Assembly: GCA_013414795.1 (NCBI GenBank) | Contig: CP058732.1 | Location: 310,001 to 374,000, forward strand | Direction of reading: 5' to 3' | DNA length: 64,000 nt | Source of the DNA: Candidatus Kapaibacterium sp. | GTDB taxonomy: Bacteria; Bacteroidota; Ignavibacteria; Kapaibacteriales; UBA2268 | Shown here: one piece after another, positions 4,449 to 40,402 of the stretch | How the letters are laid out: every line of letters starts with the position of its first letter | Position numbering within the stretch: position 1 is the first letter of the stretch | Notes under the pieces: model-generated | Told to the model about the DNA's origin: nothing | What the model saw: only the letters and a program-made list of their open reading frames with translations | The model's database searches: none | Program-made: the position numbers and the translations under genes

Positions 4449-4532
4449 AACAGCGAAAACGAAACACGAAAATTAACCCTTTACCTAGATATATATGTCT
4501 TTTAACAGATAAATATCTGGTTTCGTACCTCC

Positions 4533-4560
4533 ACCCAAATTCCACTTTGGGTTGTTTCTC
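4533..4560 (+). terminator. possible weak terminator after the ATPase-nuclease gene
   Basis: ACCCAAA and TTTGGGT form a 7-bp stem with a 6-base loop, followed by a pyrimidine-rich tract (TGTTTCTCTT) about 90 bases after the stop codon. The tail is not a clean T-run, so the call is weak. Confidence 0.3.
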
Positions 4561-5039
4561 TTATATGCTGGTGGGTTAAACGCAATTTCTAAAATAGAGG
4601 TGGAAATAGAAAAAAGAATATATAAAAACGAGTTTTACTTTACCTTAAGATTTTTTCATACTGCATTTTGGGTATGATTTAATTCATCAGGCTATTCTTT
4701 TCCGCCTCGTCGTGATTAACGAATTGCTACTTTAACATTAAAAAATGGCATTTTGGTCCTATCCCTTGGTAAGTTTGTTTGAATACTTTTTATTTATTGA
4801 AAACCCAGCAAAAGAAAAACCTTTATGTTGTAATATAGGTTATAATCAATAATTATAGTACTTTTGTTTGTTATGTGAATCTGTATTTAGTGTTTACTTT
4901 CATATGAAAAGTTTTAGTCTTGATTTTAGAAACATTATGGTCTGAATACCAGAAAAGAATATTGATAGTATTGTGTTTATTCTAAGTTTTAATATAGTTT
5001 TTCTTTCTTTTTCGGCTTGTCTACTTATCTGATTTACTT

Positions 5040-5063
5040 ACAAACCGCCGTGGTTTGTTTTTT
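5040..5063 (+). terminator. intrinsic-terminator-like hairpin with no gene directly upstream
   Basis: ACAAACC and GGTTTGT form a 7-bp stem around the loop GCCGT, followed at once by a run of six T. It has the form of a plus-strand intrinsic terminator, yet the nearest plus-strand gene ends about 590 bases upstream. It may end a long 3' tail or an unrecognised small RNA. Confidence 0.45.
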
Positions 5064-5273
5064 GATAACCTCTAAGATCTGGGAGTATTATAATAACAAT
5101 TTGATGTAATTGCAGTTTGTAATTACTTTCTTCAATTATGGAAATAATATAATAACGCAAAACACATCGTATAACACAACATAAAAAATATCACTTTTGG
5201 GTTGAGAAATGTGATCCTATCATAAAAAATCATAACGAAAAATAGTTAATTGATTTTGTTAGACTCAAATTTC

Positions 5274-7109
5274 CTACTCTATTCCTTCTAATGTTTGCAT
5301 TACGGCGTCGATTCTGCCGAATGGGGCGGAAATTTGCACGCCTTGAATCAAGTGGCGAATTTCGCTTATCGTTTCGCGGGCGATTGCAATCCCTTCTTCT
5401 AAACTTCGCTCCTTGCTGTCGGCTACCTTTCGCATTCGGTCAATTATTTCGTCGGGGACTACCACCCCTGGCACTTCGTTTTTCATAAATTCTGCATTAC
5501 GCAAAGAAGTTAATGGCCAAATTCCAGCAATTACCGGCAATCGATAATGTTCGATTTGCTTCAAAAACGATTTAAAGCCAGCGACATCGAAAATTGGTTG
5601 AGTTACGATGAATTCTGCGCCCGCGTCCACTTTCCAATAAAGCCGACGCAATTCTTCGTCCAAATTAACAGCGAGCGGGTTTACTCCAACCCCAATGAAA
5701 AATCCAGTAGGGTCGCCTATTGGATATCCAGCAATGTCCAAGCCATTATTCAGCCTTGTCAAAATGTTCACAAGTCCAATTGAATCGACATCGAAAACCC
5801 CGGTTGCGTCGGGATAGGTGCCCAGTTTCGGCGGGTCGCCAGTGATTGCCAAAATGTTTCTTATTCCCAAAGCGTAAGCCCCAAGCAAATCGGATTGTAT
5901 CCCGATTACGTTTCTGTCGCGGCAAACAAAATGGAGAACGGTTTCGATACCCACTTCCCGTTGTATTTTTACCGCAAGAGCCAACGCACTCATTCGGGCG
6001 CTTGCCCGTGGTCCGTCTGGAATATTGATTACATCGATTCCATTGTAAAACAATTCGCGGGCTTTGTTTATTTCTTTGCTTGGGTCAACTCCCCGAGGGG
6101 AGAGCAATTCCACGAACTTAACAAAATGCCCTTGAAGAAGCCTTCGAGCAAGTCGCGATTTATCTTTCTTTTCGATTGGCTTAACTTTGGGCTCTTCTTT
6201 CAATGTGATTTTTTCAATCTTCTGGAATGTGATTTTTGGTTGTAGCGCCAGAATAGCCGTAGACATCTTCTTGATGTGTTCAGGGTTGGTACCACAGCAG
6301 CCGCCGACAATGTTTGCTCCGGAACGCACGAACAGTTTGGCATACTCGGCAAAATATTCTGGCGATGCAAGATAGATGTTCCTTCCGTCGACGTTTTTCG
6401 GTTTCCCGGCGTTTGGCATTATCGAAATAGGCAATGATGTTAGCGGGCGTACCCTTTCCAGCCAATCCAGCATTGTTTGTGGACCGACTGTGCAATTGAC
6501 ACCGATGACGTCCGCTCCAATGCTTTCAAGTTCAGAAATTGTTGTCTCGGGGTCGGTTCCGGTCAATGTGTTTCCATACTCGTCGATTGTGATTTGGGCT
6601 ATGATTGGAATGGTAGTCATTTTCCGGGCTGCAATTACTGCTTGCCTCAATTCATCGATATTGATAAATGTCTCGAAAATTAGCAAATCCGCTCCGCCGT
6701 CCAGCAAAGGTTTTATTACTTCGGTGAAATACTCTTGGGCTTCTTCCCTTGAAATTGGTCCGAGCGGTTCAATTTGTACGCCGAGAGGACCAATCGACCC
6801 GGCAACGAAAACTTTTTCCCCAGCAACTTCCCGAGCAAGTTTTGCTCCCGCAAGCACAATGTCGTAAAGTTTATCTTGAATATTAAACCTTTTCAATTTG
6901 AATCTGTTGGCGCCGAAAGTGTTGGTCTCGATTGCTTGCGCCCCAGCGTTGATATAATCGATATGAATTTGCTTGACAAGTTCGGGGGCAGACAAGTTTG
7001 TTTCTTCAAAGCATTTATTAATAAATATTCCCCGGCGGTAGAGTTCGGTTCCCATTCCGCCATCAAAAAGCAGTACTCGTTCTCCAAGTTGAGATAAAAA
7101 GTCTTTCAT
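5274..7109 (-). CDS. bifunctional homocysteine S-methyltransferase / 5,10-methylenetetrahydrofolate reductase
   Basis: A 611-residue fusion. The N-terminal half (about 1-290) is a homocysteine S-methyltransferase barrel with the start LLFDGGMGTELYRRG and zinc ligands in IGVNCTVGPQ and GGCCGTNPEH. The C-terminal half (about 325-611) is a MetF-type FAD barrel, with FVELLSPRG, NIPDGPRASARMS and ITGDPPKLG. The two domains reduce methylenetetrahydrofolate and pass a methyl group to homocysteine in methionine synthesis, as proposed for the same fusion in Bacillus YitJ. The exact methyl donor used by the N-terminal domain is not readable from sequence. The gene stands alone, with no SAM or cobalamin riboswitch visible in the roughly 100 bases between its start and the divergent tRNA. 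Confidence 0.9.
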   Translation of the reverse strand: MKDFLSQLGERVLLFDGGMGTELYRRGIFINKCFEETNLSAPELVKQIHIDYINAGAQAIETNTFGANRFKLKRFNIQDKLYDIVLAGAKLAREVAGEKVFVAGSIGPLGVQIEPLGPISREEAQEYFTEVIKPLLDGGADLLIFETFINIDELRQAVIAARKMTTIPIIAQITIDEYGNTLTGTDPETTISELESIGADVIGVNCTVGPQTMLDWLERVRPLTSLPISIMPNAGKPKNVDGRNIYLASPEYFAEYAKLFVRSGANIVGGCCGTNPEHIKKMSTAILALQPKITFQKIEKITLKEEPKVKPIEKKDKSRLARRLLQGHFVKFVELLSPRGVDPSKEINKARELFYNGIDVINIPDGPRASARMSALALAVKIQREVGIETVLHFVCRDRNVIGIQSDLLGAYALGIRNILAITGDPPKLGTYPDATGVFDVDSIGLVNILTRLNNGLDIAGYPIGDPTGFFIGVGVNPLAVNLDEELRRLYWKVDAGAEFIVTQPIFDVAGFKSFLKQIEHYRLPVIAGIWPLTSLRNAEFMKNEVPGVVVPDEIIDRMRKVADSKERSLEEGIAIARETISEIRHLIQGVQISAPFGRIDAVMQTLEGIE

Positions 7110-7174
7110 TGCAAGAATTTGAAAAAAATAAAATTAAACAAAACGAATAATTTTTTTATCGAGTTGGATTTTGA

Positions 7175-7206
7175 TTTGCATATTTTGTTAAAATTGATTA
7201 ATTTTG
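7175..7206 (+). promoter_or_regulatory. Bacteroidota-type promoter for tRNA-Thr
   Basis: TTTG at 7175-7178 is followed after 20 bases by TAATTTTG at 7199-7206. This matches the TTTG-N19/21-TAnnTTTG pattern known for the primary sigma factor of Bacteroidota. The tRNA begins 11 bases after the downstream box, so transcription would start just before the mature 5' end. Confidence 0.5.
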
Positions 7207-7217
7207 TATTTCGATAA

Positions 7218-7290
7218 GCCACCTTAGCTCAGCTGGTAGAGCAGCTGATTTGTAATCAGCCGGTCGCTGGTTCGAATCCGGCAGGTGGCT
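7218..7290 (+). tRNA. tRNA-Thr (anticodon UGU)
   Basis: A 73-base cloverleaf. The acceptor stem GCCACCT pairs with AGGTGGC, the D arm has AGCTGGTAGA, and the anticodon stem GCTGA/TCAGC encloses the loop TTTGTAA (anticodon TGT). The T arm has GGTTCGAATCC and the discriminator base is T. CCA is not encoded. A terminator follows directly, so it is probably a single-gene transcript. Confidence 0.95.
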
Positions 7291-7292
7291 CG

Positions 7293-7321
7293 AAAAATCC
7301 ACCCAAGTGGTGGATTTTTTT
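7293..7321 (+). terminator. intrinsic terminator after tRNA-Thr
   Basis: ATCCACC (7297-7303) pairs with GGTGGAT (7309-7315) around a 5-base loop, with A/T extension and a run of T after the stem. It separates the tRNA from the biotin carboxylase gene. Confidence 0.8.
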
Positions 7322-7421
7322 ATTTTCTTCGAGCAGTTTATGTTAAATTTTTGCTTTGCTTCTCGTTGAAGTTTTTTTCAATTGCAAAAATTTATTAAAT
7401 TCACTTTTTTTGAAATCGCTT

Positions 7422-8930
7422 ATGTTCAAAAGAATTCTTATCGCAAACAGGGGCGAAATTGCTTGCAGAATTATCCGCGCTGCCCACGAACTGGGTATCG
7501 AAACTGTTGCGATTTATCACAAGGTCGATCGCGAGTCGCTCTACGTGCGGATGAGCGATTACGCTTTTGAAATTTTTGCCGACCAACCTAAATCTGCATA
7601 TCTGGATATTCAGCAGATAATTGATGTTGCAAAGCGAAGCGGGGCGCAAGCAATCCACCCCGGCTATGGTTTCCTTTCCGAGCGAGCTCCATTTAGCCAG
7701 GCTTGTCTGGATGCTGGCGTGAAGTTCATTGGACCGAAACCTTATTCGATTGACGCAATGGGTTCGAAAACCCGAGCACGCGAACTTATGGAGCGGGCTG
7801 GTGTGCCAATTGTTCCCGGGACGAAATCCCCAATCACTGATGTCGACGAAGGGCTTGCCACCGCTGAACGCATTGGGTTCCCCGTGCTTTTGAAAGCCTC
7901 GGCTGGGGGCGGTGGCAAAGGAATGCGCAAAGTATTCCGAGCCGATGAGTTCAAGGATAGTTTCGAATCTGCTCAACGCGAGGCACTTAAATCCTTCGGC
8001 GATGGCTCGATTTACATCGAAAAATTCCTCGAAAATCCTAAACATATAGAAATTCAGATTATTGGCGACGAGTTTGGGAACTATGTCCATCTTGGCGAAC
8101 GCGATTGTTCAATACAAAGGCGACACCAGAAAGTAATCGAAGAGGCTCCCTCGACTGTTCTCGATGATGAACTTCGTCACAAAATGGGCTCGGTTGCAAT
8201 CGAAGCAGCCCGCGCTGTCGAATATGTTAACGCCGGGACTATTGAGTTCCTTTTCGACAAAAATCGAAATTTCTACTTCCTCGAGATGAATACCCGCTTG
8301 CAAGTTGAACATCCGGTTACCGAATTCGTTACTGGTATCGATATTGTCAAGGAGCAAATAAGAATTGCAAGCGGTTACCCTCTTTCATTCAAACAGGAGG
8401 ATATAAAATGGCGTGGGCATTCGATAGAATGCAGAATTAATGCCGAAGACCCGTTCAACAATTTTATGCCCGATACTGGTAGAATTCGATACTTGCGCGA
8501 GCCAGGCGGAAAAGGGGTTCGCCTTGATAGCGGAGTGGAAACTGGCTCGGAAATTACTATCCACTTCGACCCACTTATTGCCAAATTGATTTCCTACGGG
8601 AAAGACCGCACCGAGGCTATCGCTGTGATGCTGAGGGCTTTGCGTGATTTCAAAATCTTTGGCGTCAAGACTGGAATACCCTTCTTGATTCAAGTGCTCC
8701 AGGAACCAAAGTTCATAGAAGGTTCCTACGACACTGGTTTCCTCGAAAATGAATTTGATTTTAGCAAACTTGAACGCCGCGACGAAGAGGTCTACAAGAC
8801 GATTTCTGCTATTGCTCTACACTTGTTTAAAACCAAGGAGAAAAAAGCCGAAATTTCCTTTGCCAAAAACCACGAAAAACACAAAAGTCGTTGGAAACTT
8901 CGTCTTCAATCTTACCGTAAGTGGCATTAA
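7422..8930 (+). CDS. accC: biotin carboxylase subunit of an acetyl-/propionyl-CoA carboxylase
   Basis: This enzyme carboxylates biotin on a carrier protein using ATP and bicarbonate. The start chosen gives MFKRILIANRGEIACR, the family's conserved first strand; a longer frame from 7356 adds only an unrelated stretch. Visible are the biotin carboxylase N-domain, the ATP-grasp glycine loop KASAGGGGKGMR, and the catalytic region EMNTRLQVEHPVTE with RINAEDP. At 502 residues it is longer than E. coli AccC (about 450). MGSKTRARELMERAGVP resembles acyl-CoA carboxylase alpha subunits more than AccC. No biotin carrier or carboxyltransferase gene is adjacent, so the substrate is uncertain. The stop codon lies 11 bases before the preferred queC start, suggesting co-transcription. 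Confidence 0.9.
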   Translation: MFKRILIANRGEIACRIIRAAHELGIETVAIYHKVDRESLYVRMSDYAFEIFADQPKSAYLDIQQIIDVAKRSGAQAIHPGYGFLSERAPFSQACLDAGVKFIGPKPYSIDAMGSKTRARELMERAGVPIVPGTKSPITDVDEGLATAERIGFPVLLKASAGGGGKGMRKVFRADEFKDSFESAQREALKSFGDGSIYIEKFLENPKHIEIQIIGDEFGNYVHLGERDCSIQRRHQKVIEEAPSTVLDDELRHKMGSVAIEAARAVEYVNAGTIEFLFDKNRNFYFLEMNTRLQVEHPVTEFVTGIDIVKEQIRIASGYPLSFKQEDIKWRGHSIECRINAEDPFNNFMPDTGRIRYLREPGGKGVRLDSGVETGSEITIHFDPLIAKLISYGKDRTEAIAVMLRALRDFKIFGVKTGIPFLIQVLQEPKFIEGSYDTGFLENEFDFSKLERRDEEVYKTISAIALHLFKTKEKKAEISFAKNHEKHKSRWKLRLQSYRKWH

Positions 8931-8941
8931 TGGAGCGAACT

Positions 8942-9625
8942 ATGAAACTTGCTGTTGTTTTGATGAGTGGCGGAATGGATTCGGCGACCACCGTTGCTGT
9001 GGCGAAATCTGTTGGTTACGAAGTTGCTGCTCTGCACGTAACTTATGGACAAAGAACGCAACAACGCGAATTGAAAGCCTTCAACGATTTGTGTGATTAT
9101 TTTCAAATCGAGAAGCGTCTTGTCGTCCCAATTGATTATTTGAAAGCGATTGGCGGTTCCTCGTTGACAGATACCCGCTTGCAAGTCGAAAAAGCAGAAC
9201 TGGAACGCAAGGAAATCCCTTCGACCTATGTCCCGTTTCGAAATGGAAATCTGCTTGCAATTGCAACAAGTTGGGCAGAAGTAATCGGCGCCACCGCAGT
9301 ATTTATTGGCGCGACACAACAAGATTCCAGCGGCTATCCCGATTGTCGAATCGACTTCTTCCTCGCCTTCGAAAAAGCGATCGATTTGGGAACTAAGCCC
9401 GAAACAAAAATTAGCATTCAAACACCTTTGATTAATTTGACAAAAAAGGATATCGTTCGGCTTGGTTATAATTTTGGGGTTCCGTTTGAATTAACTTGGA
9501 GTTGCTACCGGGAAAGCGACGTTGCTTGCGGGGAATGCGATTCTTGTGCCTTGCGACTTCGTGGGTTCCAGCAAGCGAACCTGGTCGACCCGCTTCCATA
9601 CAAGACATTCCCGAAATATGCATAA
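8942..9625 (+). CDS. queC: 7-cyano-7-deazaguanine synthase QueC
   Basis: QueC converts carboxydeazaguanine to preQ0 with ATP and ammonia in queuosine synthesis. The PP-loop LMSGGMDSATT lies near the N-terminus and the C-terminal zinc site is CYRESDVACGECDSCALR, both intact. The start at 8942 gives MKLAVVLMSGG and has a GGAG site a few bases upstream. An ATG at 8930, overlapping the accC stop, is possible but less well placed. Length 227 residues, normal for the family. FolE and a COG0720 synthase, which could supply the precursor, are far away at 44.7-45.9 kb. Confidence 0.93.
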   Translation: MKLAVVLMSGGMDSATTVAVAKSVGYEVAALHVTYGQRTQQRELKAFNDLCDYFQIEKRLVVPIDYLKAIGGSSLTDTRLQVEKAELERKEIPSTYVPFRNGNLLAIATSWAEVIGATAVFIGATQQDSSGYPDCRIDFFLAFEKAIDLGTKPETKISIQTPLINLTKKDIVRLGYNFGVPFELTWSCYRESDVACGECDSCALRLRGFQQANLVDPLPYKTFPKYA

Positions 9626-9628
9626 AGA

Positions 9629-9656
9629 AACTCCCGCCCGAACCCGAGCAGGAGTT
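9629..9656. terminator. shared terminator between queC and the convergent surface-protein gene
   Basis: AACTCC (9629-9634) pairs with GGAGTT (9651-9656) with further GC pairing inside. It lies between the two convergent stop codons and can fold on either strand. The flanking T-runs are short. Confidence 0.5.
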
Positions 9657-9679
9657 GAATTTAGAACAAAGTGGAACTT

Positions 9680-11500
9680 TTAGTACTGATAAACGCCCAC
9701 TATTCGCCAACCCGAATTTGCATAAACAAGTGTGATTCCTATATAACTATTGCCCGCGGTTCTTGTGATAGTTGTTAGACTGCCAATTTGAACATTATCC
9801 TCGTTCCCACTCGATGGATCTGGGTCATAAACCACAACATAGAGGATTTTGCCGTCGCTGGCTGTTGGCATTGTTAACACATCTGTGGTTCCGTTGTCGT
9901 CGGATGTAATATAAGCAACAGAAACGTCATTGGGGATAGTGAAAGTACCAGCGGAAGGTGCTGCATAAGACAATTTCACATCGCCGCCGCCATCAGCAAT
10001 TGAAAGAGCATTGTCGGAAGCTGTGTTGTCAATTGTAACATTGCCATTGAATGCGGCAGTATTAGCAGTTAGGTCACCTTCCTTGTCAACAAGAAAAACA
10101 GGCGTTGTGGAACCGTTTAGCACTGCAATCCTGGGATCGTTAGCATTGTTGCTCGGATTATAAAGCAACCGCACACCATAAGGCGTAGAAGGGTTATCTG
10201 GAACCCCTACGCCGACGGACCAGGAATTGGTCGTGATATCCCAACCTAAACCAGCGCGCAAATTGCCGTTGGTTCGGTCCTTGACTGCAACACCACCATT
10301 CTCTAGTGTCGAAGAATTAGTCGCTGGACCAATGGTAACAAGAGGTTGATTCGTTCCCGGATCAACTATGTCAAAGAATGCCTTCTGGGTGCTTGGGTAG
10401 TAAACCAATCGGTACCCGTCGCTCTCTGAACGAATACCATTGGCATATACTGTTCTCCATCTTTGAGTTGAACTTCCAAGGTCGTAAGTGATATTAATAT
10501 TTGGTATAATATGCGAATTTACCTCTGCATTAAATACGACGTTATCGGTATTGGCATTGCCCAATGTAACATCGCCATCAAATAGAGCATTACCAGTTAC
10601 TTGGAAGTCGTCGTTAACATAGACACGACCACTGTTGTTACTAGAAGTATTAGATATTGCTCCTTGCAAGTCGCTTGTGCCGGTTACAACCAAACTCGAG
10701 AATGTTGCCGAACCACCAGTAAGTGCACCAGAATAATAGATATCTTTCCATTGCAAGGCATTGGTTCCAAGGTCATAGGTATTATTAGTATTTGGAATGA
10801 AATTACTTCCAACTCGAGCGGTGAAAACAACATTATCCGATGTGGCATCCCCCAATGTAACATTGCCATTTGCAGTCAAGTTTGTAAATGTTCCCGCTGC
10901 GGGCGTTGTTCCGCCTATTGGTGTATTATTAATCGTTCCACCATTGATTGTTAAGTTGTCTGCTACTTCATTATCTGCCCACGGATTTGCAGTGTTATCC
11001 CAGTTGCCTGTGATTACTTCATTTTGACCCAAGTTTGCATAGTTTGGTTCGGCTGCCGTCCATACTGGATCCGTTTCTGGCAACGAAGCCCAAGACAAAT
11101 TTCCACTGCCATCTGTTGTAAGAACTTGCCCCGATGTTCCATATGAGGTGGGCAAATAGAAAGTTAGGTTGGAAGTAAGGCTTGCAGGAACGGCAAAAGT
11201 GATGTAAGCAGTTCCATTGAACAAGCCAAGCCCACCAGTTGCCCAAAGTCGCATACGTTCTATGTTGTTAGTACGGAAGATTAGGTCGAAAGCGTTAGTT
11301 GTGCCGAGGAAATGCGAGCCAGTGATAGCATTTCCAGTCAGCGTCCACCCAGCATTTTGAATTGCTTCGGGTGGAAGGAAATCCCAGCGCTGAGTTCCGT
11401 TTGAGTCCAGCCAGAGGACTTTTCCATAGGGCGAAGTTTGAGCGAAAAGCGAAAAAGAGCAGAATACTGCAAAAGCAAAGTAAATGAATAATTTTTTCAT
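9680..11500 (-). CDS. secreted tail-fibre-like surface protein, paralogue A
   Basis: 606 residues from the ATG at 11500, which begins a clear signal peptide (MKKLFIYFAFAVFCSFSLFAQ). The first 125 residues or so after the signal nearly match the neighbouring paralogue. The middle has two copies of a phage-tail-fibre-like motif, NTYDLGTNALQWKDIYY and ITYDLGSSTQRWRTVYA, each with VTLGDA/VTLGNA-type strands. The C-terminus ends in IVGVYQY and lacks the S74 chaperone domain and coiled coil seen in the neighbour. No type IX sorting domain is recognised. Inference: an exported, beta-rich fibre or adhesin. The function is unknown. Confidence 0.75.
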   Translation of the reverse strand: MKKLFIYFAFAVFCSFSLFAQTSPYGKVLWLDSNGTQRWDFLPPEAIQNAGWTLTGNAITGSHFLGTTNAFDLIFRTNNIERMRLWATGGLGLFNGTAYITFAVPASLTSNLTFYLPTSYGTSGQVLTTDGSGNLSWASLPETDPVWTAAEPNYANLGQNEVITGNWDNTANPWADNEVADNLTINGGTINNTPIGGTTPAAGTFTNLTANGNVTLGDATSDNVVFTARVGSNFIPNTNNTYDLGTNALQWKDIYYSGALTGGSATFSSLVVTGTSDLQGAISNTSSNNSGRVYVNDDFQVTGNALFDGDVTLGNANTDNVVFNAEVNSHIIPNINITYDLGSSTQRWRTVYANGIRSESDGYRLVYYPSTQKAFFDIVDPGTNQPLVTIGPATNSSTLENGGVAVKDRTNGNLRAGLGWDITTNSWSVGVGVPDNPSTPYGVRLLYNPSNNANDPRIAVLNGSTTPVFLVDKEGDLTANTAAFNGNVTIDNTASDNALSIADGGGDVKLSYAAPSAGTFTIPNDVSVAYITSDDNGTTDVLTMPTASDGKILYVVVYDPDPSSGNEDNVQIGSLTTITRTAGNSYIGITLVYANSGWRIVGVYQY

Positions 11501-11528
11501 TTTGCACCTTATGTTTTTTAGACAAAAA

Positions 11529-11536
11529 CAAAAATA
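11529..11536 (-). promoter_or_regulatory. possible -7 box for paralogue A
   Basis: Read on the minus strand the sequence is TATTTTTG, a match to TAnnTTTG, 28 bases before the start codon. Similar TATATTTTTGT strings recur near 11643 and 11678 in the same AT-rich gap. No well-spaced -33 TTTG is evident, so this is tentative. Confidence 0.3.
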
Positions 11537-11731
11537 TAGAAAAAAATATGCCAAACTCTTTGTTTCAATACCAAAAAATCTAATATTTTACTGATATTTA
11601 CAAACCAATAAAAATTGTTATACATTTAACAAAATACAAAAATATAAAAAAATTAATAAACAATGTTAAAATACAAAAATATAGAAAAAAAATAAAAAAA
11701 CAAAAAAATTTTCAAAATTTTTCGTTGGTTA

Positions 11732-13618
11732 TTACTTTGCTTGGCTAAATTTTCCCAAATTTATAACTTGTTGCTTAATGGTTTCAATTTCTGCTTGTAA
11801 TTGGTTGATCTGTGCTTCGTGTTTTGCTGCCGTTTGCCGGAGTTTGGCGTTTTCCTCCCGGAGTTTGGAGTTTTCTTGTCGAAGTTGTTCGATTTCCATT
11901 TGTTGCTCTTGTACTGATTTGATTAGTGGCATTACCAAGTCACCATAATCGAGTGTGTACACATCCTTGTCGTTTTGTGGTCGGTGCAAACCGGGAAATT
12001 CAAAACCAGTTTCCTTCATTGCTTGCTCGACGTCTTGGGCTATCAAGCCTATCCAGCGACGTGATCTTGCGTCGGTAAAATCGTAATTCTTCAAGACGCT
12101 GTCGGGTGTCCCCCATATACGATGCAATAGCATTGGGTCCTTGTTGAACGTAACCGGTCGCAATTTCATTACGAAGTCCAAACCGTGAACATCTTCCCGA
12201 ACATTAGTCTTGAAGCGTGCATCTGAATATGTTGTTATTGACCCAACAGCAGCACGAATTTGTGTTACACTGGTGTTCCCCAAAAGCACTTGGTTGTCTC
12301 CCGTGCATTCAGCATTGGAAATCCCATAACCCAACATAGTAACATTGGTTCTGTCTGTTGTTGGGTAACTATTTGCACCAACAAAGGTGCATTGGTTGAA
12401 GTTTACTCCAAACCCACCATATCCAGCATTGTACCCTACAGCAACATTATAACTGCCAGTAGAGTTGGAATAGAGTGCAGAAGAGCCGCTCGCTGTATTA
12501 AAATTGCCAGTGGTGTTGGAATAAAGTGCATCCCCACCGCTCGCTGTATTAGCAATGCCACTGGTGTTGGCAGTAAGTGCCCACGCACCGCTCGCTGTAT
12601 TCCCACTGCCAGTGTTGTTGGAATAGAGTGCCTCATAACCGCTCGCTGTATTAGCAATGCCAGTGTTGTTAACAAGTGTTTGATAACCCCAAGCAGTATT
12701 ATATGGGTAATCATAGTCAATCCAACCAGACTTCTGGTTGTTAACTTTGATTTGCAAGGCTTTGGCGTCAGTTGTTCCAATGAAATTTGTTGATGGATTG
12801 GTTCCAGAATTCCCTGTTAAAGACCAACCAGGGAAATTCGTCCATTGAGGTGTTACACCACTTGTAGTAAGCACTTGACCATTGGTACCCGCAGCCAATT
12901 TGCTCACAGCTATCGCCGCACTATTGCTTATGTCTGCATCTACTATCGTTCCGTCTGCTATCTTTGCACTCGTTATTGCGTTGTTGGCTATTGTTGTGTT
13001 CAATGTAACATTCGAAGTACCATTAAAAGATACAGCGCTTGCTGTTACATCTCCACTTAATGCAAAGTTCCTTGCTGTTTGCAATGCTGTCGCTGTTCCA
13101 GCATTACCACTGATGTTGCCCGTGATGGTATTGCTAAATGTCCAAGTGCCGGTAATTGTTGTTGTACCAGATTTGTCGTTTGTCCATAACGGGTCTGTCT
13201 CCGAACCCCAGGACAAAATTCCGCTGCCATTGGTTGTAAGGAATTGCCCCGATGTTCCATATGAGGTGGGCAAAGTGAAAGTTAGGTTGGAAGTAAGGCT
13301 GGCAGGAACGGCAAAAGTGATGTAATAAGTTCCATTGAACAAACCAAGCCCACCAGTTGCCCAAAGTCGCATACGCACTGTGTCATTAGTACGGAAGATT
13401 AGGTCGAAAGCGTTAGTTGTGCCGAGGAAATGCGCACCAGTGATAGCATTACCAGTCAACGCCCACCCAGCATTTTGAATTGCTTGGGGTGGAAGGAAGT
13501 CCCAATGTTGAGTTCCGTTTGAGTCCAGCCAGAGGACTTTTCCATAGGGTGGAATTTGAGCGAAAAGCGAAAAAGAGCAGAAAACTGCTAAGACGAAAAG
13601 TAGAAATGATTTTTTCAT
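11732..13618 (-). CDS. secreted tail-fibre-like protein with peptidase S74 intramolecular chaperone domain, paralogue B
   Basis: 628 residues with a signal peptide (MKKSFLLFVLAVFCSFSLFAQ) and the same N-terminal module as paralogue A. The middle carries YadA-head-like 17-residue repeats (NTASGxxALYSNxTG). These are followed by an S74 chaperone domain (YSDARFKTNV with its Ser and Lys, then WIGLIAQDVEQ) and a coiled coil near the end (EQLRQENSKLREENAKLRQ). Known: S74 domains help trimeric fibres fold and then often cut themselves off. Inference: a trimeric surface fibre. It lies downstream of dapA on the same strand, 114 bases away. Confidence 0.82.
   Translation of the reverse strand: MKKSFLLFVLAVFCSFSLFAQIPPYGKVLWLDSNGTQHWDFLPPQAIQNAGWALTGNAITGAHFLGTTNAFDLIFRTNDTVRMRLWATGGLGLFNGTYYITFAVPASLTSNLTFTLPTSYGTSGQFLTTNGSGILSWGSETDPLWTNDKSGTTTITGTWTFSNTITGNISGNAGTATALQTARNFALSGDVTASAVSFNGTSNVTLNTTIANNAITSAKIADGTIVDADISNSAAIAVSKLAAGTNGQVLTTSGVTPQWTNFPGWSLTGNSGTNPSTNFIGTTDAKALQIKVNNQKSGWIDYDYPYNTAWGYQTLVNNTGIANTASGYEALYSNNTGSGNTASGAWALTANTSGIANTASGGDALYSNTTGNFNTASGSSALYSNSTGSYNVAVGYNAGYGGFGVNFNQCTFVGANSYPTTDRTNVTMLGYGISNAECTGDNQVLLGNTSVTQIRAAVGSITTYSDARFKTNVREDVHGLDFVMKLRPVTFNKDPMLLHRIWGTPDSVLKNYDFTDARSRRWIGLIAQDVEQAMKETGFEFPGLHRPQNDKDVYTLDYGDLVMPLIKSVQEQQMEIEQLRQENSKLREENAKLRQTAAKHEAQINQLQAEIETIKQQVINLGKFSQAK
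12437..12690 (-). repeat. 51-bp tandem repeat coding for 17-residue YadA-head-like units
   Basis: The string GCTCGCTGTAT recurs at 12490, 12541, 12592 and 12643, exactly 51 bases apart, with a more diverged unit on the left side. Each unit codes for a variant of NTASGxxALYSNxTGxx. In-frame gain or loss of units would change fibre length without a frameshift. Confidence 0.85.
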
Positions 13619-13732
13619 TTTTCCCTCAAAAAAAATTTATAAAGAAAATATTATATTTTTGCCCTTTGCAAATGGCATCTAAAATTCCTCTGTTTAATTT
13701 ATATTACCTATAAATCGCCAAGTGGAGAAAGT

Positions 13733-14626
13733 TTAAGATATAATTTTTGCCCGCCTTAATGCTTCTTTGATTTTCTTTTTGGCTTCGTTTTCCAATGGGA
13801 GCAGAGGCAATCGGTAGACCTCTTTTGTGAATCCAAGAAGGGACATTGCATATTTGACTGGAATGGGGTTGGGTTCGATAAAGTTCAATTCCATTAGTTC
13901 AAGCAATTCGTAGTGGAGTGTGCGGGCTTTTTCGATTTTGTTTTGCAAAGCGAAACGAACCATATCGGAAAACTTTTTGGGGGCGTAATTTGAAATTACG
14001 GAAACAACACCTTTACCACCCAGGGCAATAATAGGGAGGGTCAAGGAATCATCTCCTGAGAGGACTGAAAATGTCGGAGGAGCATTTTGGATGATTTTCA
14101 TAATCTGGTCAAGGTTGCCCGAGGCTTCTTTGGTCGCAACAATATTAGGGCAATCCTGAGCAAGGCGGATTTGGGTTTGCGCTGAGATATTTACACCAGT
14201 TCGACCTGGTACATTGTAAAGGATTAGAGGTATGTCCACGTTAGTAGCAATAAGGCGGAAATGTTCGTACAATCCGGATTGATTTGGCTTATTGTAATAT
14301 GGAGCGACAAGCAAACAAGCGTCGGCGCCGTGTTCCATTGCAAAAATTGTCATATTCAAAGAGAGCTCTGTTTCGTTTGTTCCAGTGCCAGCAATAACTG
14401 GTACCCTTCCGTTGGTGTGTTCAACAGATTCGACAATAATTGCTTGCTTTTCCTTTAAGGAAAGAGTGGCGCTTTCGCCAGTTGTGGCGCAAACAACGAT
14501 ACCGTCAACACCGTTTTCGATTTGAAAGTCAATCAATTTTCTTAATGCTTTGAAGTCGACTTCTCCTTTACGGTTGAATGGAGTTATCAATGCAGTGAAA
14601 GTTCCAACTGGTGTAAATTTTTTCAT
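13733..14626 (-). CDS. dapA: 4-hydroxy-tetrahydrodipicolinate synthase DapA
   Basis: DapA condenses pyruvate with aspartate semialdehyde, the first committed step to lysine and diaminopimelate. 297 residues, family length. Visible are the substrate loop GTTGES in the form CATTGESATL, LYNVPGRTG with the catalytic Tyr, and VATKEASGN with the Schiff-base Lys. The N-terminus FTPVGTFTALITPF is typical. It is divergent from the TonB receptor gene. No lysine riboswitch is visible in the short leader. Confidence 0.95.
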   Translation of the reverse strand: MKKFTPVGTFTALITPFNRKGEVDFKALRKLIDFQIENGVDGIVVCATTGESATLSLKEKQAIIVESVEHTNGRVPVIAGTGTNETELSLNMTIFAMEHGADACLLVAPYYNKPNQSGLYEHFRLIATNVDIPLILYNVPGRTGVNISAQTQIRLAQDCPNIVATKEASGNLDQIMKIIQNAPPTFSVLSGDDSLTLPIIALGGKGVVSVISNYAPKKFSDMVRFALQNKIEKARTLHYELLELMELNFIEPNPIPVKYAMSLLGFTKEVYRLPLLPLENEAKKKIKEALRRAKIIS

Positions 14627-14930
14627 AACATTTACTCCAAATTTCTAATTTTCAATTAATTTTCTCTCAATTTATCAAACAAACTTGTCTAAATTAATTA
14701 AAATTCGTCAAAAACAAAAATTTTTTAAAGTTTATCTTTAAAAATTGTGTATAATTTTAAATCTAAGCTATATTTCTAGCTTATTTTATTACAGTTCTTG
14801 ATTTTAGATTAAAGAAATTGTAGTAAATATTTTATCATCAGAAAAGGAAAAGAAGGAACCCAAATATAAAAATATTTTAGCGAGGTGTCGTCTAATATTT
14901 TTTTTAGTTTTAACAAACTTTTGATGTTGT
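14627..14930. other. divergent intergenic region, dapA / TonB receptor
   Basis: About 300 AT-rich bases between two divergent genes. They must hold both promoters. TATAAT-like and TTTG strings occur, for example around 14750, but none is clear enough to assign. No reading frame or structured RNA is supported. Confidence 0.4.
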
Positions 14931-17213
14931 ATGAAAAGATATGTTATATATTTTTTGATATATTGCTTTTTGGGATTGTCGTCACTGCTTGCCCAAGAGC
15001 AAACTGTTTCGATTTCTGGAAAGGTTGTAAATGCAAACGATGGGAAACCAGTTCCCGGTGTTACAGTTCTTGTCGAAGGGACAAAACTTGGTGCTTTCAC
15101 GAATAGCGAAGGTAAATTCCAAATCAAAGGGTTGACCCCGGGAGTGTACTCTGTTCGGTTCTCTGCTGTCGGTTTCGAAACCTTTGTCAAAGCAAATGTT
15201 TACGTAACCAACGTAAAGCCCGTCTTTTTGGAAGTGGACTTAGTCGAAAAAGTTGTTAACATTGAAGGAGTGGAAGTCCGAGGGAAATATTTCGAAAGAT
15301 TTATCGAAACGACGACAAGCACAAGCACTTTCAGTGCCGAGGACATTCGCCGAGCCCCGGGCGTTCAAGAGGATATTGTACGAGCCACGGCTTTGTTGCC
15401 AGGTGTTGCTGTAACCTCTGCCGGTCGCAATGATTTGATTGTTCGGGGAGGTGCCCCATTCGAAAATTTATTCATTGTTGACAACATTGAAGTCCCAAAT
15501 ATTAACCATTTCGGGACGCAAGGTGCCAGCGGCGGACCACTTTCGATTATAAACATAGATTTTGTGAAGAATGTACAATTTAGCGCCGGCGGTTTTGGAG
15601 TTAAATATGGCGACCGTACATCCTCCCTTACCCAGATTTCACTGTACAATGGGAACGAGGAGAAGTTTGGTGGCAAATTTGTAATTTCTGCGACTGGGGC
15701 TGGTTTGAACCTCGAAGGACCAGTAAATAGCAAAGGTACATTCTTCTTCTCTGCCCGCCGTAGTTACTTGGATTTTATTTTCAAGGCTGCAAACTTTGCG
15801 TTCATTCCAGAATATTGGGATTTTCAAGGCAAACTGAATTTTAAATTGGATGAACTAAATACGTTAACTTTTCTTGCTATCGGAGCGCTCGACTATGTGA
15901 ATTTGAACAATGATAATCCAGATAATGCTTACAAGAATAGCAGAGTTGCCGTTCCCGAACAAAAGCAATATTTTTCTGGGCTTAATTGGAAACACATTTT
16001 TAATAGTGGATTTTTCAATATTACCCTTGGGCGAACATACACAAAATTCGATACATTTCAAAACGACTCCAATCTTGTAGAGATTCTAAAAAACAAATCG
16101 GTCGAGGGCGAAACTTCGTTGAAAGCAGATTTTGAAGTAAAATTGTCTAATATTTTTAATCTTTCCTTTGGCAATCAAACAAAATTTGGTAGTAAACTAA
16201 ATTACGACATCTTTGTCGACGGGCGGTTTCGCTTAGATGAAAATGGGAATCCTTCGGAATATCGTGTCGATACCTCTTTTAGCACGGTTAAGAACGGAAC
16301 TTATGTCAATCTTGCAACATCGATTGGACGACACAGGGTGTCCTTTGGATTAAGAGGGGACTACTACAACTTTACAACAACCAAGTATTTCGTGTCCCCG
16401 AGGATTTCTGTTTCGTATATGATTAATCCAGTCTCTACAATTATATTTAGTTTAGGTAGATACTACCAATCTCCTTCCTACATATGGTTGGTTGGAGCAC
16501 CAAACCAGAAACTTGAACCAATTCGCGCCGACCAGGTTGTCCTTGGGTATGAGCATACACCATTCGAAGACTTAAAAGTACAACTTGAGGTTTATTACAA
16601 ACAATATAGAAATTATCCAGCGCGTGTCTTTCGTCCCCAAGCAGTTCTTTCCCCAAGTGGTTTCGACGATTTGTCGAGCGATATACCTTTTGGAATAGAG
16701 CCGCTTGTCTCCGAAGGCAAAGGCTGGGCACGGGGCGTGGAATTGTTGATTCAAAAACGTTTCAATCCAAGTTTCCCGTTGTATGGTCTTTTGAGCATTA
16801 CGGTTAGTCAAAGCAAATTTGCTGGGTTGGACGGGATTGAACGACCAAGCGCCTACGACAGCCCTTTGATTTTCAATCTCTCGCTTGGCTATCGATTCAA
16901 TCCCGAATGGGAAGTTAGTTACAAATACCGTGCAGCCATTGGACAGCCAACAACTCCTTATCTTCCCAATGGAAGGCTGGACTTTTCTCTTTACAACGAA
17001 GGTGAGCGACTTCCTATGTTCCGACAAACAGATATTCGCGTAGATAAACGATGGTTTTTAAAAAATTTCAACATAGTTACATATCTTGATATTCAAAATG
17101 TATTTTCGACAAAAAATAAGACTTCTGTTCGTTGGAATTTCCGTGAACGTAGAACTGAGTATTTGGAATCGTTTGGAATTCTCCCAAGCATTGGTGTTTA
17201 TTTAGAATTTTAA
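14931..17213 (+). CDS. TonB-dependent outer-membrane receptor with N-terminal carboxypeptidase-regulatory-like domain
   Basis: 760 residues. After a signal peptide ending ...SSLLAQ comes a CarboxypepD_reg-like beta-sandwich (about 25-110, VSISGKVVNANDGKPVPGV). A plug domain follows (about 125-230, with LLPGVAVTSAGRNDLIVRGG), then a 22-strand-type barrel. This architecture is characteristic of Bacteroidota receptors that take up siderophores, glycans or other large ligands with energy from TonB. No SusD-like partner is adjacent, so it is probably not a glycan-uptake SusC. The ligand is unknown. A bidirectional terminator follows. Confidence 0.9.
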   Translation: MKRYVIYFLIYCFLGLSSLLAQEQTVSISGKVVNANDGKPVPGVTVLVEGTKLGAFTNSEGKFQIKGLTPGVYSVRFSAVGFETFVKANVYVTNVKPVFLEVDLVEKVVNIEGVEVRGKYFERFIETTTSTSTFSAEDIRRAPGVQEDIVRATALLPGVAVTSAGRNDLIVRGGAPFENLFIVDNIEVPNINHFGTQGASGGPLSIINIDFVKNVQFSAGGFGVKYGDRTSSLTQISLYNGNEEKFGGKFVISATGAGLNLEGPVNSKGTFFFSARRSYLDFIFKAANFAFIPEYWDFQGKLNFKLDELNTLTFLAIGALDYVNLNNDNPDNAYKNSRVAVPEQKQYFSGLNWKHIFNSGFFNITLGRTYTKFDTFQNDSNLVEILKNKSVEGETSLKADFEVKLSNIFNLSFGNQTKFGSKLNYDIFVDGRFRLDENGNPSEYRVDTSFSTVKNGTYVNLATSIGRHRVSFGLRGDYYNFTTTKYFVSPRISVSYMINPVSTIIFSLGRYYQSPSYIWLVGAPNQKLEPIRADQVVLGYEHTPFEDLKVQLEVYYKQYRNYPARVFRPQAVLSPSGFDDLSSDIPFGIEPLVSEGKGWARGVELLIQKRFNPSFPLYGLLSITVSQSKFAGLDGIERPSAYDSPLIFNLSLGYRFNPEWEVSYKYRAAIGQPTTPYLPNGRLDFSLYNEGERLPMFRQTDIRVDKRWFLKNFNIVTYLDIQNVFSTKNKTSVRWNFRERRTEYLESFGILPSIGVYLEF

Positions 17214-17220
17214 AAAGAAA

Positions 17221-17252
17221 GGCGAAACGGTAAACCCGTTTCGCCATATTTT
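17221..17252. terminator. strong bidirectional terminator
   Basis: GGCGAAACGG pairs perfectly with CCGTTTCGCC around a short TAAAC loop, with A-rich sequence before and T-rich sequence after. It serves the TonB receptor gene and the convergent GlmU-like gene. Confidence 0.85.
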
Positions 17253-17262
17253 TATGATATTT

Positions 17263-18555
17263 CTATCTTCCACGCTTGTTTGATTGGATTTTGTGTTCAA
17301 TCTCCAAGATTTGTCTTTCTTCCTCTAAAAGGGATTTTCCTCGTCGAGCCATCATAGTTTCAATAGACTTGACGGTTCGCTCGAAATTTCCAATTGTGCT
17401 TTGGGTTTTATTTCCTCCCCAAGTGAACGAGGGGATATATTTAGATAACAGACCCGAATTGTAGATGTTGCAACAGATTCCAGTTATTGTTCCAGTGTTG
17501 AATGATGTATTAATTGCAGTGCGTGTGTGGTCCCCACAAATCAAACCGAGGAAGGTTCGTCCCGTATCAAATGTTTCGTTCTCAATTCGAACGGTAACGG
17601 ATTCGTATGTATTTTTCAAATCCGATGTTGTTGTCCCTGCTCCAAGATTGCACCATTCCCCAATGTAAGAATGGCCAAGGAATCCGTGGTGTTGTTTGTT
17701 CGAGTAGGCTTGGATAATAGTATTTTCAATTTCGCCACCAACTTTGCAAACTTCGCCAATGCTTGTTCCTTGATAGATAAACGACCCAGTTTTGATTGTC
17801 GAATTTTTCCCAATAGCAACTGGACCTTCGATGTAGGAGAATGGTTGTATCGTAACATTGTCCCCAATGATTATGGCTCCTTTTTCAGCATTGAGAACAA
17901 CGTTGGGTAAAATTCTTACATCTTTCCCTATCTTTATTTTGTTTTCATTGATTAAAGAAACTGATTGCGAACGGAGTTGGTCGAAGTCTGCAAAATTTTC
18001 GAAATAGCGAAAGTCGTTTTCGATTGCATCAGCATTGTATTCGATTGCATCCCACAAAAAATTTATCACTTTGGGGATTGGCAGTTCAACTCGTGGTAAC
18101 TTTTCGAAATATTTGTGCAAAAGTATTTCGTAAAAACGATTATCGAATTCTGTTGGGTTAACCATTTCTTCGGCAACGATGTAGAAGGCTATCGGAACAT
18201 TGCCAACAAAAAATGTGCAAGATTTTGTCTCTCGGGAAGAATTGCAAAACTCATCGTATGCTTTGTTGATATTTGCCCAAAAATTTCTTTCGGGCAAAAT
18301 TCCAGAATTTAAAACGAACAGATTGCCCTTCTCGATTGAATTATCTGCTATCAAAAATTTCTTTAAAAATAGTTTAAGATAGGTTTCCCTGTTAGTATGG
18401 AAAACCAATCGTGCGTTGGGAAATTCTTTTTGGACTTTTTCGAATAGGCGTAAAGCCCCACAGCGGACTTCCCATTGCGTATGCAAAAGATAGAATGGGT
18501 AGAGACTTCGAAAATACTCGTTTTCAAAAAGTAGAATTGTATCGGGTGAAATCAT
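17263..18555 (-). CDS. GlmU-family protein with left-handed beta-helix acyltransferase domain
   Basis: 430 residues. The N-terminal half (about 1-190) resembles the divergent nucleotidyltransferase-like domain of Bacteroidota GlmU-family proteins; its conserved LYPF motif is present but a canonical pyrophosphorylase signature is not seen. The C-terminal half is a hexapeptide-repeat beta-helix (IGKDVRILPNVVLNAEKGAI, IGDNVTIQPFSYI, IGEWCNLGAGTTTSDLKN). Inference: a sugar-phosphate acetyl- and/or nucleotidyltransferase for cell-wall or LPS precursors. Its start overlaps the FKBP stop by 4 bases (ATGA), indicating translational coupling with FKBP and pyrG. Confidence 0.8.
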   Translation of the reverse strand: MISPDTILLFENEYFRSLYPFYLLHTQWEVRCGALRLFEKVQKEFPNARLVFHTNRETYLKLFLKKFLIADNSIEKGNLFVLNSGILPERNFWANINKAYDEFCNSSRETKSCTFFVGNVPIAFYIVAEEMVNPTEFDNRFYEILLHKYFEKLPRVELPIPKVINFLWDAIEYNADAIENDFRYFENFADFDQLRSQSVSLINENKIKIGKDVRILPNVVLNAEKGAIIIGDNVTIQPFSYIEGPVAIGKNSTIKTGSFIYQGTSIGEVCKVGGEIENTIIQAYSNKQHHGFLGHSYIGEWCNLGAGTTTSDLKNTYESVTVRIENETFDTGRTFLGLICGDHTRTAINTSFNTGTITGICCNIYNSGLLSKYIPSFTWGGNKTQSTIGNFERTVKSIETMMARRGKSLLEEERQILEIEHKIQSNKRGR

Positions 18556-40300: not shown

Positions 40301-40402
40301 TTCGCGAACCGAAGTTTCGTGTGAAATACCAAATTTCTCGTACTGGTCGAGTTCGATGTAATAATTTTTAACAATTTTCAGATTTTCATTCAATTTCAAC
40401 AT
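37343..40402 (-). CDS. single-chain restriction-modification enzyme (PD-(D/E)xK nuclease + N6-adenine methyltransferase)
   Basis: 1,019 residues. An N-terminal nuclease-like region has Asp69 (IIIDGAF) and the ExK motif GFWEAK (Glu84, Lys86). A helical linker precedes the methyltransferase domain, with the SAM motif DPFVGTGNF (349-357) and the catalytic NPPY (452-455) of N6-adenine enzymes. The remaining 500 residues or so should hold the target-recognition domain. The sequence resembles Type ISP enzymes (Eco57I/LlaBIII-like), but no helicase motifs are seen, so it fits Type IIG better. No separate methyltransferase or specificity gene is adjacent. Inference: restricts foreign DNA while methylating the host's. 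Confidence 0.85.
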   Translation of the reverse strand: MLKLNENLKIVKNYYIELDQYEKFGISHETSVREAFRKVLDYCCKQTNLQLVSEYSIENPFKKTKIIIDGAFLDHFNLTHGFWEAKDSQDDLDKEIKLKFQKGYPAINTIFQAPYHAVIFQNKIKVFDEPIDKPKNLVTALELLFNYKSEPIADWEQAVEQFKEKIPALAQSLLELIEKEMQNNHHFRQAYRSFADIIRLSINPNISESAIEEMLIQHLLTEQIFSSVFNNPDFVKKNIIARQIESVVDALTHKYFNKQEFFKPLNPFFASIKNVANNSDLLFDFASKQSFLNTVYEKFFQGFAVKQADTLGIVYTPQPVVNFMVDSVEQILRREFNRSLASPGVHILDPFVGTGNFILNIMRKIKKTELQYKYRHELHCNEVMLLPYYVATMNIEHTYYELIGEYEPFPGACLVDTFELAESRQLELGFSEENTQRIEQLKQTPIFVYISNPPYNAGQVNENDNNKNRKYPTIDRRIRETFVKDSKATNKNVLYDPYVRAFRFAMDKIMEQGEGIIAFISNNGFIDGIAFDGMRKHIYENFNLIYHFNLRGNARTSGEKRRKEKGNIFEDKIRVGVGITILVKFKNRNDKKIFYYDIGDYLTSEEKRKIVENFGNIYNVPWREIVPDSNHTWLTEGLQEDFDSLVPLGTKEAKAGKENALFSIFINGVKTNRDSWVYNWNKNVLIKNIKIITDTYNYHVFKYQQLEEKPNIDDFVEYDDKKISWDSHLKNCLKYLQFAKYNENQIRNSIYRPFVKQFLYYDRILNNTYTLFYKIFPTAESENENRVIAFTAIGCSKPFHSLMINCIPDMHLCGDTQCFPFYVYEVDGSGRRENISDWALELFRNHYHDERITKWDIFYYIYAVLHKEDYRQRYQQNLRRSLPRIPLYENFWKFAQAGRKLGDLHVNYEQAEEYPLEAIENPNEQLDYRVEKMVISKDKQSIKYNDFLTLAGVPLEVYNYRLGNRSALEWVVDQYRVKVDPRSGIVNDPNRADDPTYIIRLIKKIVTVSLETIKIVESL

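What the first reader, a model, noticed from the sequence alone, without database searches (positions are those of the whole stretch)
9680..13618. Tandem modular surface paralogues sharing an N-terminal block but with different bodies and ends
After nearly identical signal peptides and a block of about 125 residues (roughly 15 differences by eye, and very similar at DNA level), the two proteins diverge completely. One carries tail-fibre TYDLG repeats and no chaperone; the other carries YadA-like head repeats, an S74 self-folding domain and a coiled coil. This suggests domain shuffling or gene conversion that keeps an export or anchoring module constant while the exposed part changes.
Basis: partly seen in the sequence, partly recalled or inferred. 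Interest (0 to 1): 0.5.

Follow-up and report, generated by a model that had tools for sequence, protein, structure and literature searches.

The report
Chimeric pair of secreted tail-fibre-like proteins
Two neighbouring bacterial genes encode secreted proteins that begin with almost the same piece and then become completely different, most likely because one front end was copied onto another fibre-like protein; such mosaic phage-tail-like surface fibres are already known in bacteria, so this is a clear but modest new example.

Summary
Protein A (9680-11500, minus strand, 606 aa) and B (11732-13618, minus strand, 628 aa) share codons 1-139: 20 of 139 residues and 44 of 417 bases differ. Upstream of the ATGs and after about base 425 they are not alike. 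dS in the block is 0.24, whereas dapA synonymous sites are saturated against three congeners, so the sharing is recent. B ends in a Peptidase_S74 domain with an SDxxxK motif plus a coiled coil; A has neither.

The block is not a unique anchor. After the signal peptide it is fibre-type hairpins around an LTGN/FLGTT module found, mostly internally, in 42 of 60 genomes searched (own included). The chimeric reading is well supported: B's C-terminal part has a 71%-identical relative in a congener behind a similar header but a different middle, and A's C-terminal cap occurs on proteins with an unrelated 'NYQ' N-terminus. One array in another genus repeats the pattern with that other N-terminus.

Closest known system: the mosaic adhesive trimer (MAT) fibres of Bdellovibrio. 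It works like a MAT pair (one S74, one non-S74), but membership is not shown. Strain-level swapping could not be tested.

The parts
9680..11500 (-). Protein A, 606 aa: signal peptide, shared N-block, tail-fibre-like body, non-S74 C-terminal cap
11732..13618 (-). Protein B, 628 aa: signal peptide, shared N-block, second LTGN module, 17-residue head repeats, Peptidase_S74, coiled coil
11084..11500 (-). N-block of A (codons 1-139); the near-identical tract begins at about base 30 of the gene
13202..13618 (-). N-block of B (codons 1-139)
10474..10869 (-). Two tail-fibre-like units in A's body, 291 bp (97 codons) apart
   Evidence: families D4 and D5; PHROG 25747
9683..10066 (-). C-terminal cap of A, related to caps of long NYQ-type proteins in relatives
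   Evidence: hits from query residue about 340, i.e. A residue about 479
12454..12670 (-). 51-bp (17-codon) tandem head repeats of B, 4.3 copies
12005..12226 (-). Peptidase_S74 domain of B, with SDARFK at residues 465-470
11735..11926 (-). C-terminal coiled coil of B (residues about 565-628)
   Evidence: coiled-coil Pfam matches (below their cut-offs); long helix 558-627 in an otherwise poor model
11501..11731 (-). Very A+T-rich spacer between B and A (16.5% G+C) with three TATTTTTG sites

Best explanation
A and B are secreted, phage-tail-fibre-like mosaic proteins of the bacterium's own genome. They probably form trimeric surface fibres whose different distal parts bind different targets. The pair is chimeric: a tract of about 395 bases, from inside the signal peptide to the ETDPxWT linker, was copied between the two genes by recombination (gene conversion or a partial duplication), most likely from B to A. 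The same export and cell-proximal segment therefore now carries two unrelated bodies. B's C-terminal S74 domain should act as an intramolecular chaperone that helps the trimer fold and then cuts itself off; A ends in a cap that has no S74. Shown here: the tract, its limits, its recency, the domain make-up and module differences between species. Inferred: trimer formation, surface display, binding function, self-cleavage and the B-to-A direction.
For: Tract limits and lack of similarity outside. Recency: dS 0.24 in the block against saturated synonymous sites for dapA in congeners G001, G003 and G004; the block is only 62% (A) and 59% (B) identical to the G004 gene lying beside dapA. Purifying selection on the block (dN 0.077, dS 0.242). 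B: S74 over cut-off, SDARFK at 465. G001 has a B-like gene: residues 340-626 at 71% behind a similar header but with a different middle. G064, another genus, has the same header, a second LTGN module and head repeats before its contig ends. A's cap occurs on NYQ-type proteins: 48% in G024, 49% in G075, 33% in this genome, consistent with A having received B's front end; the N-termini of the other cap-bearing proteins were not checked. The pattern repeats in G019:C90 with an unrelated N-terminus: 81% N-block, no similarity in the rest. Signal peptides by reading; eight neighbouring proteins match no structural, packaging or integration family of phages; no phage record matched A's N-block (13 of 13 rows start at residue 207 or later).
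Against: No strain comparison was possible, so swapping within the species is unproven. A partial tandem duplication gives nearly the same pattern as conversion. The first 30 bases might simply evolve faster, as signal peptides do. The longest identical run is not unusual (p 0.13), so a second, more recent conversion is not indicated. In most other tandem array pairs examined the bodies are partly alike too (17 of 20 pairs). The G004 N-block is slightly closer to A than to B (62% against 59%) and its body is unknown, which leaves the direction open. Nothing here demonstrates trimers, surface location or cleavage; the full-length B model was poor (pLDDT 39.8).
Confidence: 0.7

Rival explanations
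1. Plain tandem duplication of one whole gene, after which the bodies diverged beyond recognition while the N-block stayed conserved by selection.
For: The genes are adjacent and in the same orientation. The block is under purifying selection.
Against: Synonymous divergence in the block is low (0.24), so bodies of the same age should still match; they do not, and upstream DNA does not either. B's body has a 71%-identical relative in a congener, so it is not evolving that fast.
Confidence: 0.07
2. Remnants of a prophage, or phage tail fibres acquired recently, rather than cell-surface proteins.
For: Bodies match phage tail-fibre and tail-spike families and phage records over parts of the bodies.
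Against: Signal peptides; eight neighbouring proteins (queC, a biotin carboxylase, dapA, a TonB-dependent receptor and others) match no phage structural, packaging or integration family (receptor and carboxylase domains). Phage identities are under 60% in 105 of 105 and 13 of 13 matching records. An N-block gene lies beside dapA in G004 too.
Confidence: 0.05
3. The repeated N-block is an active switching device: recombination between the two direct repeats (2118 bp apart, 91% over 300 bp) deletes or re-forms the set, putting A's body behind B's start, so that cells vary the displayed fibre.
For: Direct repeat in the right orientation and spacing. A G004 contig ends inside its N-block gene, which could reflect a repeat.
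Against: No strain or read data; the two copies have already diverged by about 10%, with no sign of ongoing homogenisation.
Confidence: 0.12

Closest known systems
Mosaic adhesive trimer (MAT) superfamily, Bdellovibrio bacteriovorus (PMC10769870)
   Same: Signal peptide followed by a beta-rich block of about 120-130 aa; members with and without a C-terminal S74 domain (SDxxxK); phage-tail-like mosaic bodies; conserved front end and varied tip.
   Different: The N-block here shows no sequence similarity to the N-terminus of one Bdellovibrionales fibre (L040) or to the NYQ N-terminal domain seen in this bacterial family. No predation, display or binding data. One S74 match in the genome, against 13 S74 members in B. 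bacteriovorus HD100 (paper).
Phage tail fibres and tail spikes with an S74 intramolecular chaperone
   Same: B's body and S74 end; A's TYDLG units and common linkers.
   Different: Signal peptide; no phage genes recognised among eight neighbours; A's N-block not matched in the phage collection, and the 15 of 105 rows seen for B start at residue 281 or later.
NYQ-type tandem surface proteins in the same bacterial family (G019, G024, G075, G076, G008 arrays)
   Same: Tandem secreted genes that share an N-terminal block; two G019:C90 pairs have unrelated remainders; similar head repeats, S74 ends or caps in various members.
   Different: The N-terminal block is a different domain (hhalign probability 0.1-0.2% against the A/B block).
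Trimeric autotransporter adhesins (YadA)
   Same: Head-like short repeats in B by eye.
   Different: Repeat period 17 residues; no YadA_head or anchor row among the 25 of 31 Pfam rows shown; ends in S74 and a coiled coil.

Membership tests
MAT superfamily | Conserved beta-rich domain of about 130 aa right after the signal peptide, of the MAT type | tested here: inconclusive
   A beta-hairpin-rich block follows the signal peptide (model pLDDT 77, pTM 0.44). It shows no BLASTP similarity to the N-terminus of one Bdellovibrionales fibre, L040 (E 19), and no profile similarity to NYQ domains. L040 itself is only sub-significantly like the NYQ profiles (E 1.6 and 0.17). The HD100 MAT N-domains themselves were not at hand.
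MAT superfamily | Phage-tail-like mosaic fibre body with S74 and non-S74 members | tested here: met
   B has S74, A has none; PHROG tail-fibre or tail-spike matches for both
MAT superfamily | Trimeric fibre, displayed on the cell surface, with an adhesive tip | not testable with these tools
   No experiment; weak structural matches of the N-block include Bd3182 and Bd2133 fibres, but at Z 2.0-2.8 only, tied with unrelated rows
Peptidase_S74 (chaperone of endosialidase) | Match above the curated cut-off | tested here: met
   B residues 465-538, 42.3 bits against cut-off 22
Peptidase_S74 (chaperone of endosialidase) | SDxxxK catalytic motif (as given in PMC10769870) | tested here: met
   SDARFK at residue 465 of B, none in A; SDGRFK in the G001 relative
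Peptidase_S74 (chaperone of endosialidase) | Self-cleavage and release of the chaperone | not testable with these tools
   Needs expression
YadA-type trimeric autotransporter | C-terminal beta-barrel anchor | tested here: not met
   B ends in S74 plus a coiled coil, with no anchor match in the Pfam rows shown (25 of 31); A's only Pfam row is an unrelated one at E 0.18
Type IX secretion cargo | C-terminal sorting domain | tested here: not met
   No such domain for A in Pfam or NCBIfam at E <= 1; none for B in NCBIfam (15 rows, all shown) or among the 25 of 31 Pfam rows shown. A divergent signal is not excluded.
Prophage tail fibre | Phage genes alongside | tested here: not met
   Eight proteins between 5277 and 20620 scanned against PHROGs at E <= 1e-5: four gave no match; the others match enzyme-like families (QueC-like, aminotransferase, NAD synthetase) or families of unknown function, none structural, packaging or integration. 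The rest of the window was only read by eye.

The most novel reading that the evidence does not exclude
Bacteria of this family run a MAT-like repertoire of secreted recognition fibres in which at least two unrelated N-terminal 'socket' blocks (the SPYGKVL/LTGN block and the NYQ block) serve the same role. Tandem copies of a socket act as landing sites for recombination that fits new distal bodies onto the same export and display segment.
Probability: 0.3. Interest if true: 0.6.

Novelty: new variant of a known kind. Interest (0 to 1): 0.35.

Why it matters
That makes a specific question testable: whether such blocks dock to a common surface partner or are just interchangeable shaft pieces.

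Tried and rejected
Considered and rejected: whole-gene duplication with later divergence (block dS too low, no shared upstream DNA); prophage origin; lipoprotein (my reading: the only Cys near the start, residue 14, sits in AVFC, which lacks a lipobox; Cys positions); type IX sorting domain.

Led nowhere: AlphaFold of full-length B (pLDDT 39.8). PDB fold search with the N-block model: no match at E <= 0.001; best was a Bdellovibrio Bd3182 fibre tip at E 0.6; structural realignment at most Z 2.8. The viral library gave 14 matches at E <= 0.001, with query TM-scores of only 0.25-0.35. Solved-structure sequence search: B only a Dec-protein fragment (E 0.0035), A nothing. Promoter-like sites equal chance (10 found, 10.0 expected). 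Rfam on 5000-18000 found only a tRNA at 7218-7290. Papers: five listings showed no account of this kind of pair; one listed title concerns shuffling of phage protein fragments (PMC10684548, listing and start of abstract only). Test of longest identical run: not significant. The genome-contig scan with B's N-block gave 4 loci, each matching only part of the block or weakly (61% over residues 100-137 in a Bdellovibrionales MAG; 38%, 51% and 32% in the others). Viral-contig scans gave 1 and 3 relatives over body segments, not followed up. A degenerate DNA pattern for SPYGKVL found only A in this genome; B has PPYGKVL.

Bias to note: the comparison arrays (G019, G076, G024, G075, G008) were chosen because they matched B's body. 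Of 20 within-array pairs, the window pair included (the 2.18-Mb pair of this genome, which shares no block, left out), all 20 have an N-terminal match, 19 of them at 50% identity or more. Only three (the window pair and two G019 pairs) have essentially unrelated remainders; the window pair keeps one 35-residue match at E 7e-4. Two G076 ORFs with broken or fused starts were dropped before that count, and some array genes are cut by contig ends or runs of N.
Full report
What is there. The window lies in a 2.66-Mb single-contig genome, unnamed in these tools. Between queC (8921-9625, plus strand) and dapA (13733-14626, minus strand) lie two minus-strand genes: B (11732-13618, 628 aa) and, downstream in the same direction, A (9680-11500, 606 aa, taking the ATG at 11500). 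queC, the biotin carboxylase and the TonB-dependent receptor beside them are supported by family matches; dapA is my reading of its translation.

The shared block. Codons 1-139 align without gaps: 20 of 139 residues and 44 of 417 bases differ. The first 30 bases hold 11 of the 44 differences and the other 387 bases hold 33 (Fisher p 6e-5). A change-point scan places the break at base 30, with 13 of 2000 permutations as strong. After about base 425 similarity stops; upstream of the ATGs only short A+T-rich matches are seen. So what is shared is a tract from inside the signal peptide to a short linker (ETDPxWT), not a gene or a promoter-plus-gene unit.

Its age. Nei-Gojobori dN is 0.077 and dS 0.242 in the block. 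For dapA between this genome and G001, G003 and G004 synonymous sites are saturated; queC against G001 gives dS 2.5. The block is 62% (A) and 59% (B) identical to the N-block gene of G004, and 53% and 50% to the G001 gene, so the two copies share an ancestor well after those species separated. dN/dS of about 0.3 suggests the block is still constrained.

What the block is. A1, a profile of five N-blocks, matched 30 of 54 genomes of the family, own included, and the single protein matched 42 of 60 genomes, own included, with up to 42 matches in one genome. Of 79 distinct matches in the fetched loci, 72 begin at model position 23 or later, that is, they lack the header and cover the module W.LTGN...FLGTT...TNN.ER.RI, mostly inside longer proteins. 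The header from its start (signal peptide, then [SP]PYGKVL, an NG.Q.W turn and the module) was seen in three proteins of this genome, one of G001, one of G004 and one of G064 from another genus. A model of the block (53 sequences, pLDDT 77, pTM 0.44) is a string of beta hairpins; by my reading the first (GKVLWLDSNGTQRW) and last (GQVLTTDGSGNLSW) hairpins of A are the same motif. The block is thus made of common fibre modules behind a signal peptide, with no visible membrane anchor.

The bodies. B has a second LTGN module, 17-residue head repeats, S74 with SDARFK, and a coiled coil; it holds the only S74 match in the genome. A has tail-fibre units and a cap. Phage-record matches fall in the bodies: from residue 207 on in A (13 of 13 rows) and from residue 281 on in the rows seen for B (15 of 105).

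Comparative evidence for shuffling. In G001 a B-like gene lies at a different place, beside another biotin carboxylase gene. Its C-terminal part is 71% identical to B residues 340-626, but between header and head repeats it has another module. Its reading frame is broken inside the N-block, by mutation or assembly error. B's middle (residues 140-249) is instead 64% identical to part of a 1300-aa G003 protein. In G004 an N-block gene lies beside dapA as here, cut by the contig end after 87 residues. G002 and G003 have no such gene among ORFs of 100 aa or more beside dapA or queC. A's cap occurs on long proteins of G024 and G075, and weakly of this genome, that begin with an unrelated 'NYQ' domain. 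B's layout being shared with G001 and partly G064, and A's cap being found on other N-termini, together favour copying from B to A. The missing body in G004, whose block is slightly closer to A, leaves this open.

Is the pattern wider? In G019:C90 three adjacent secreted genes share an NYQ block; two of them are 81% alike there and unlike afterwards (one ends in S74, the other in a collagen-like stretch and a Lcl_C-like domain below its cut-off). In four other arrays the N-blocks are 50-89% alike and the bodies are partly alike too. These arrays were found through B's body, so they are not a random sample. The A/B block and the NYQ domain are unrelated by profile comparison (hhalign probability 0.1-0.2%; the two NYQ subgroups score 97% with each other).

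How it probably works. From the families involved, I infer export by Sec, assembly into trimers, and display with the N-terminal block nearest the cell and the body outward, with S74 in B serving as a folding chaperone that cuts itself off. None of this was measured. The closest characterised system is the MAT superfamily of Bdellovibrio. I saw the abstract, passages and the whole Discussion of PMC10769870. [quoted passage not shown] A and B repeat that layout.

Verdict. I rate it a new variant of a known kind, interest 0.35.

Noticed in passing
G000:C1:2178000-2191000 (L082): A second cluster of secreted modular proteins in the same genome: a 344-aa protein with the SPYGKVL header, a 1256-aa protein, and a 1803-aa NYQ-type fibre-like protein whose cap weakly resembles A's.
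   Followed up: partly
G000:C1:2444800-2448000 (L083) and G003:C3 (L079): A 1045-aa secreted mosaic protein and its 1300-aa relative in G003 seem to differ in module content; the G003 copy carries a stretch 64% identical to B's middle.
   Followed up: partly
window 11501-11731: Spacer between B and A is only 16.5% G+C, with three TATTTTTG sites on the minus strand, one with a TTG at Bacteroidota-type spacing (recalled consensus); chance was not assessed.
   Followed up: no
window 9629-9656: Terminator-like hairpin (12 pairs) just past the 3' end of A, facing queC's end; no minus-strand terminator-like site was listed in the spacers between dapA, B and A.
   Followed up: no
L166 (G019:C90), 1882-6782: Three tandem secreted genes share an NYQ N-block; the middle one has a collagen-like stretch plus Lcl_C-like domain instead of an S74 end.
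   Followed up: partly
L072 (G001:C63), about 5880-7240: B-like gene with a frame break inside the N-block; real pseudogene or assembly error not resolved.
   Followed up: no
window 3-4448 (+) and 37343-40402 (-): Two likely defence genes: a TmtA-like protein (PADLOC E 4e-262, with a NOV_C end) and a Type ISP/IIG restriction-methylation enzyme (PADLOC E 6e-244; Pfam Type_ISP_C).
   Followed up: partly
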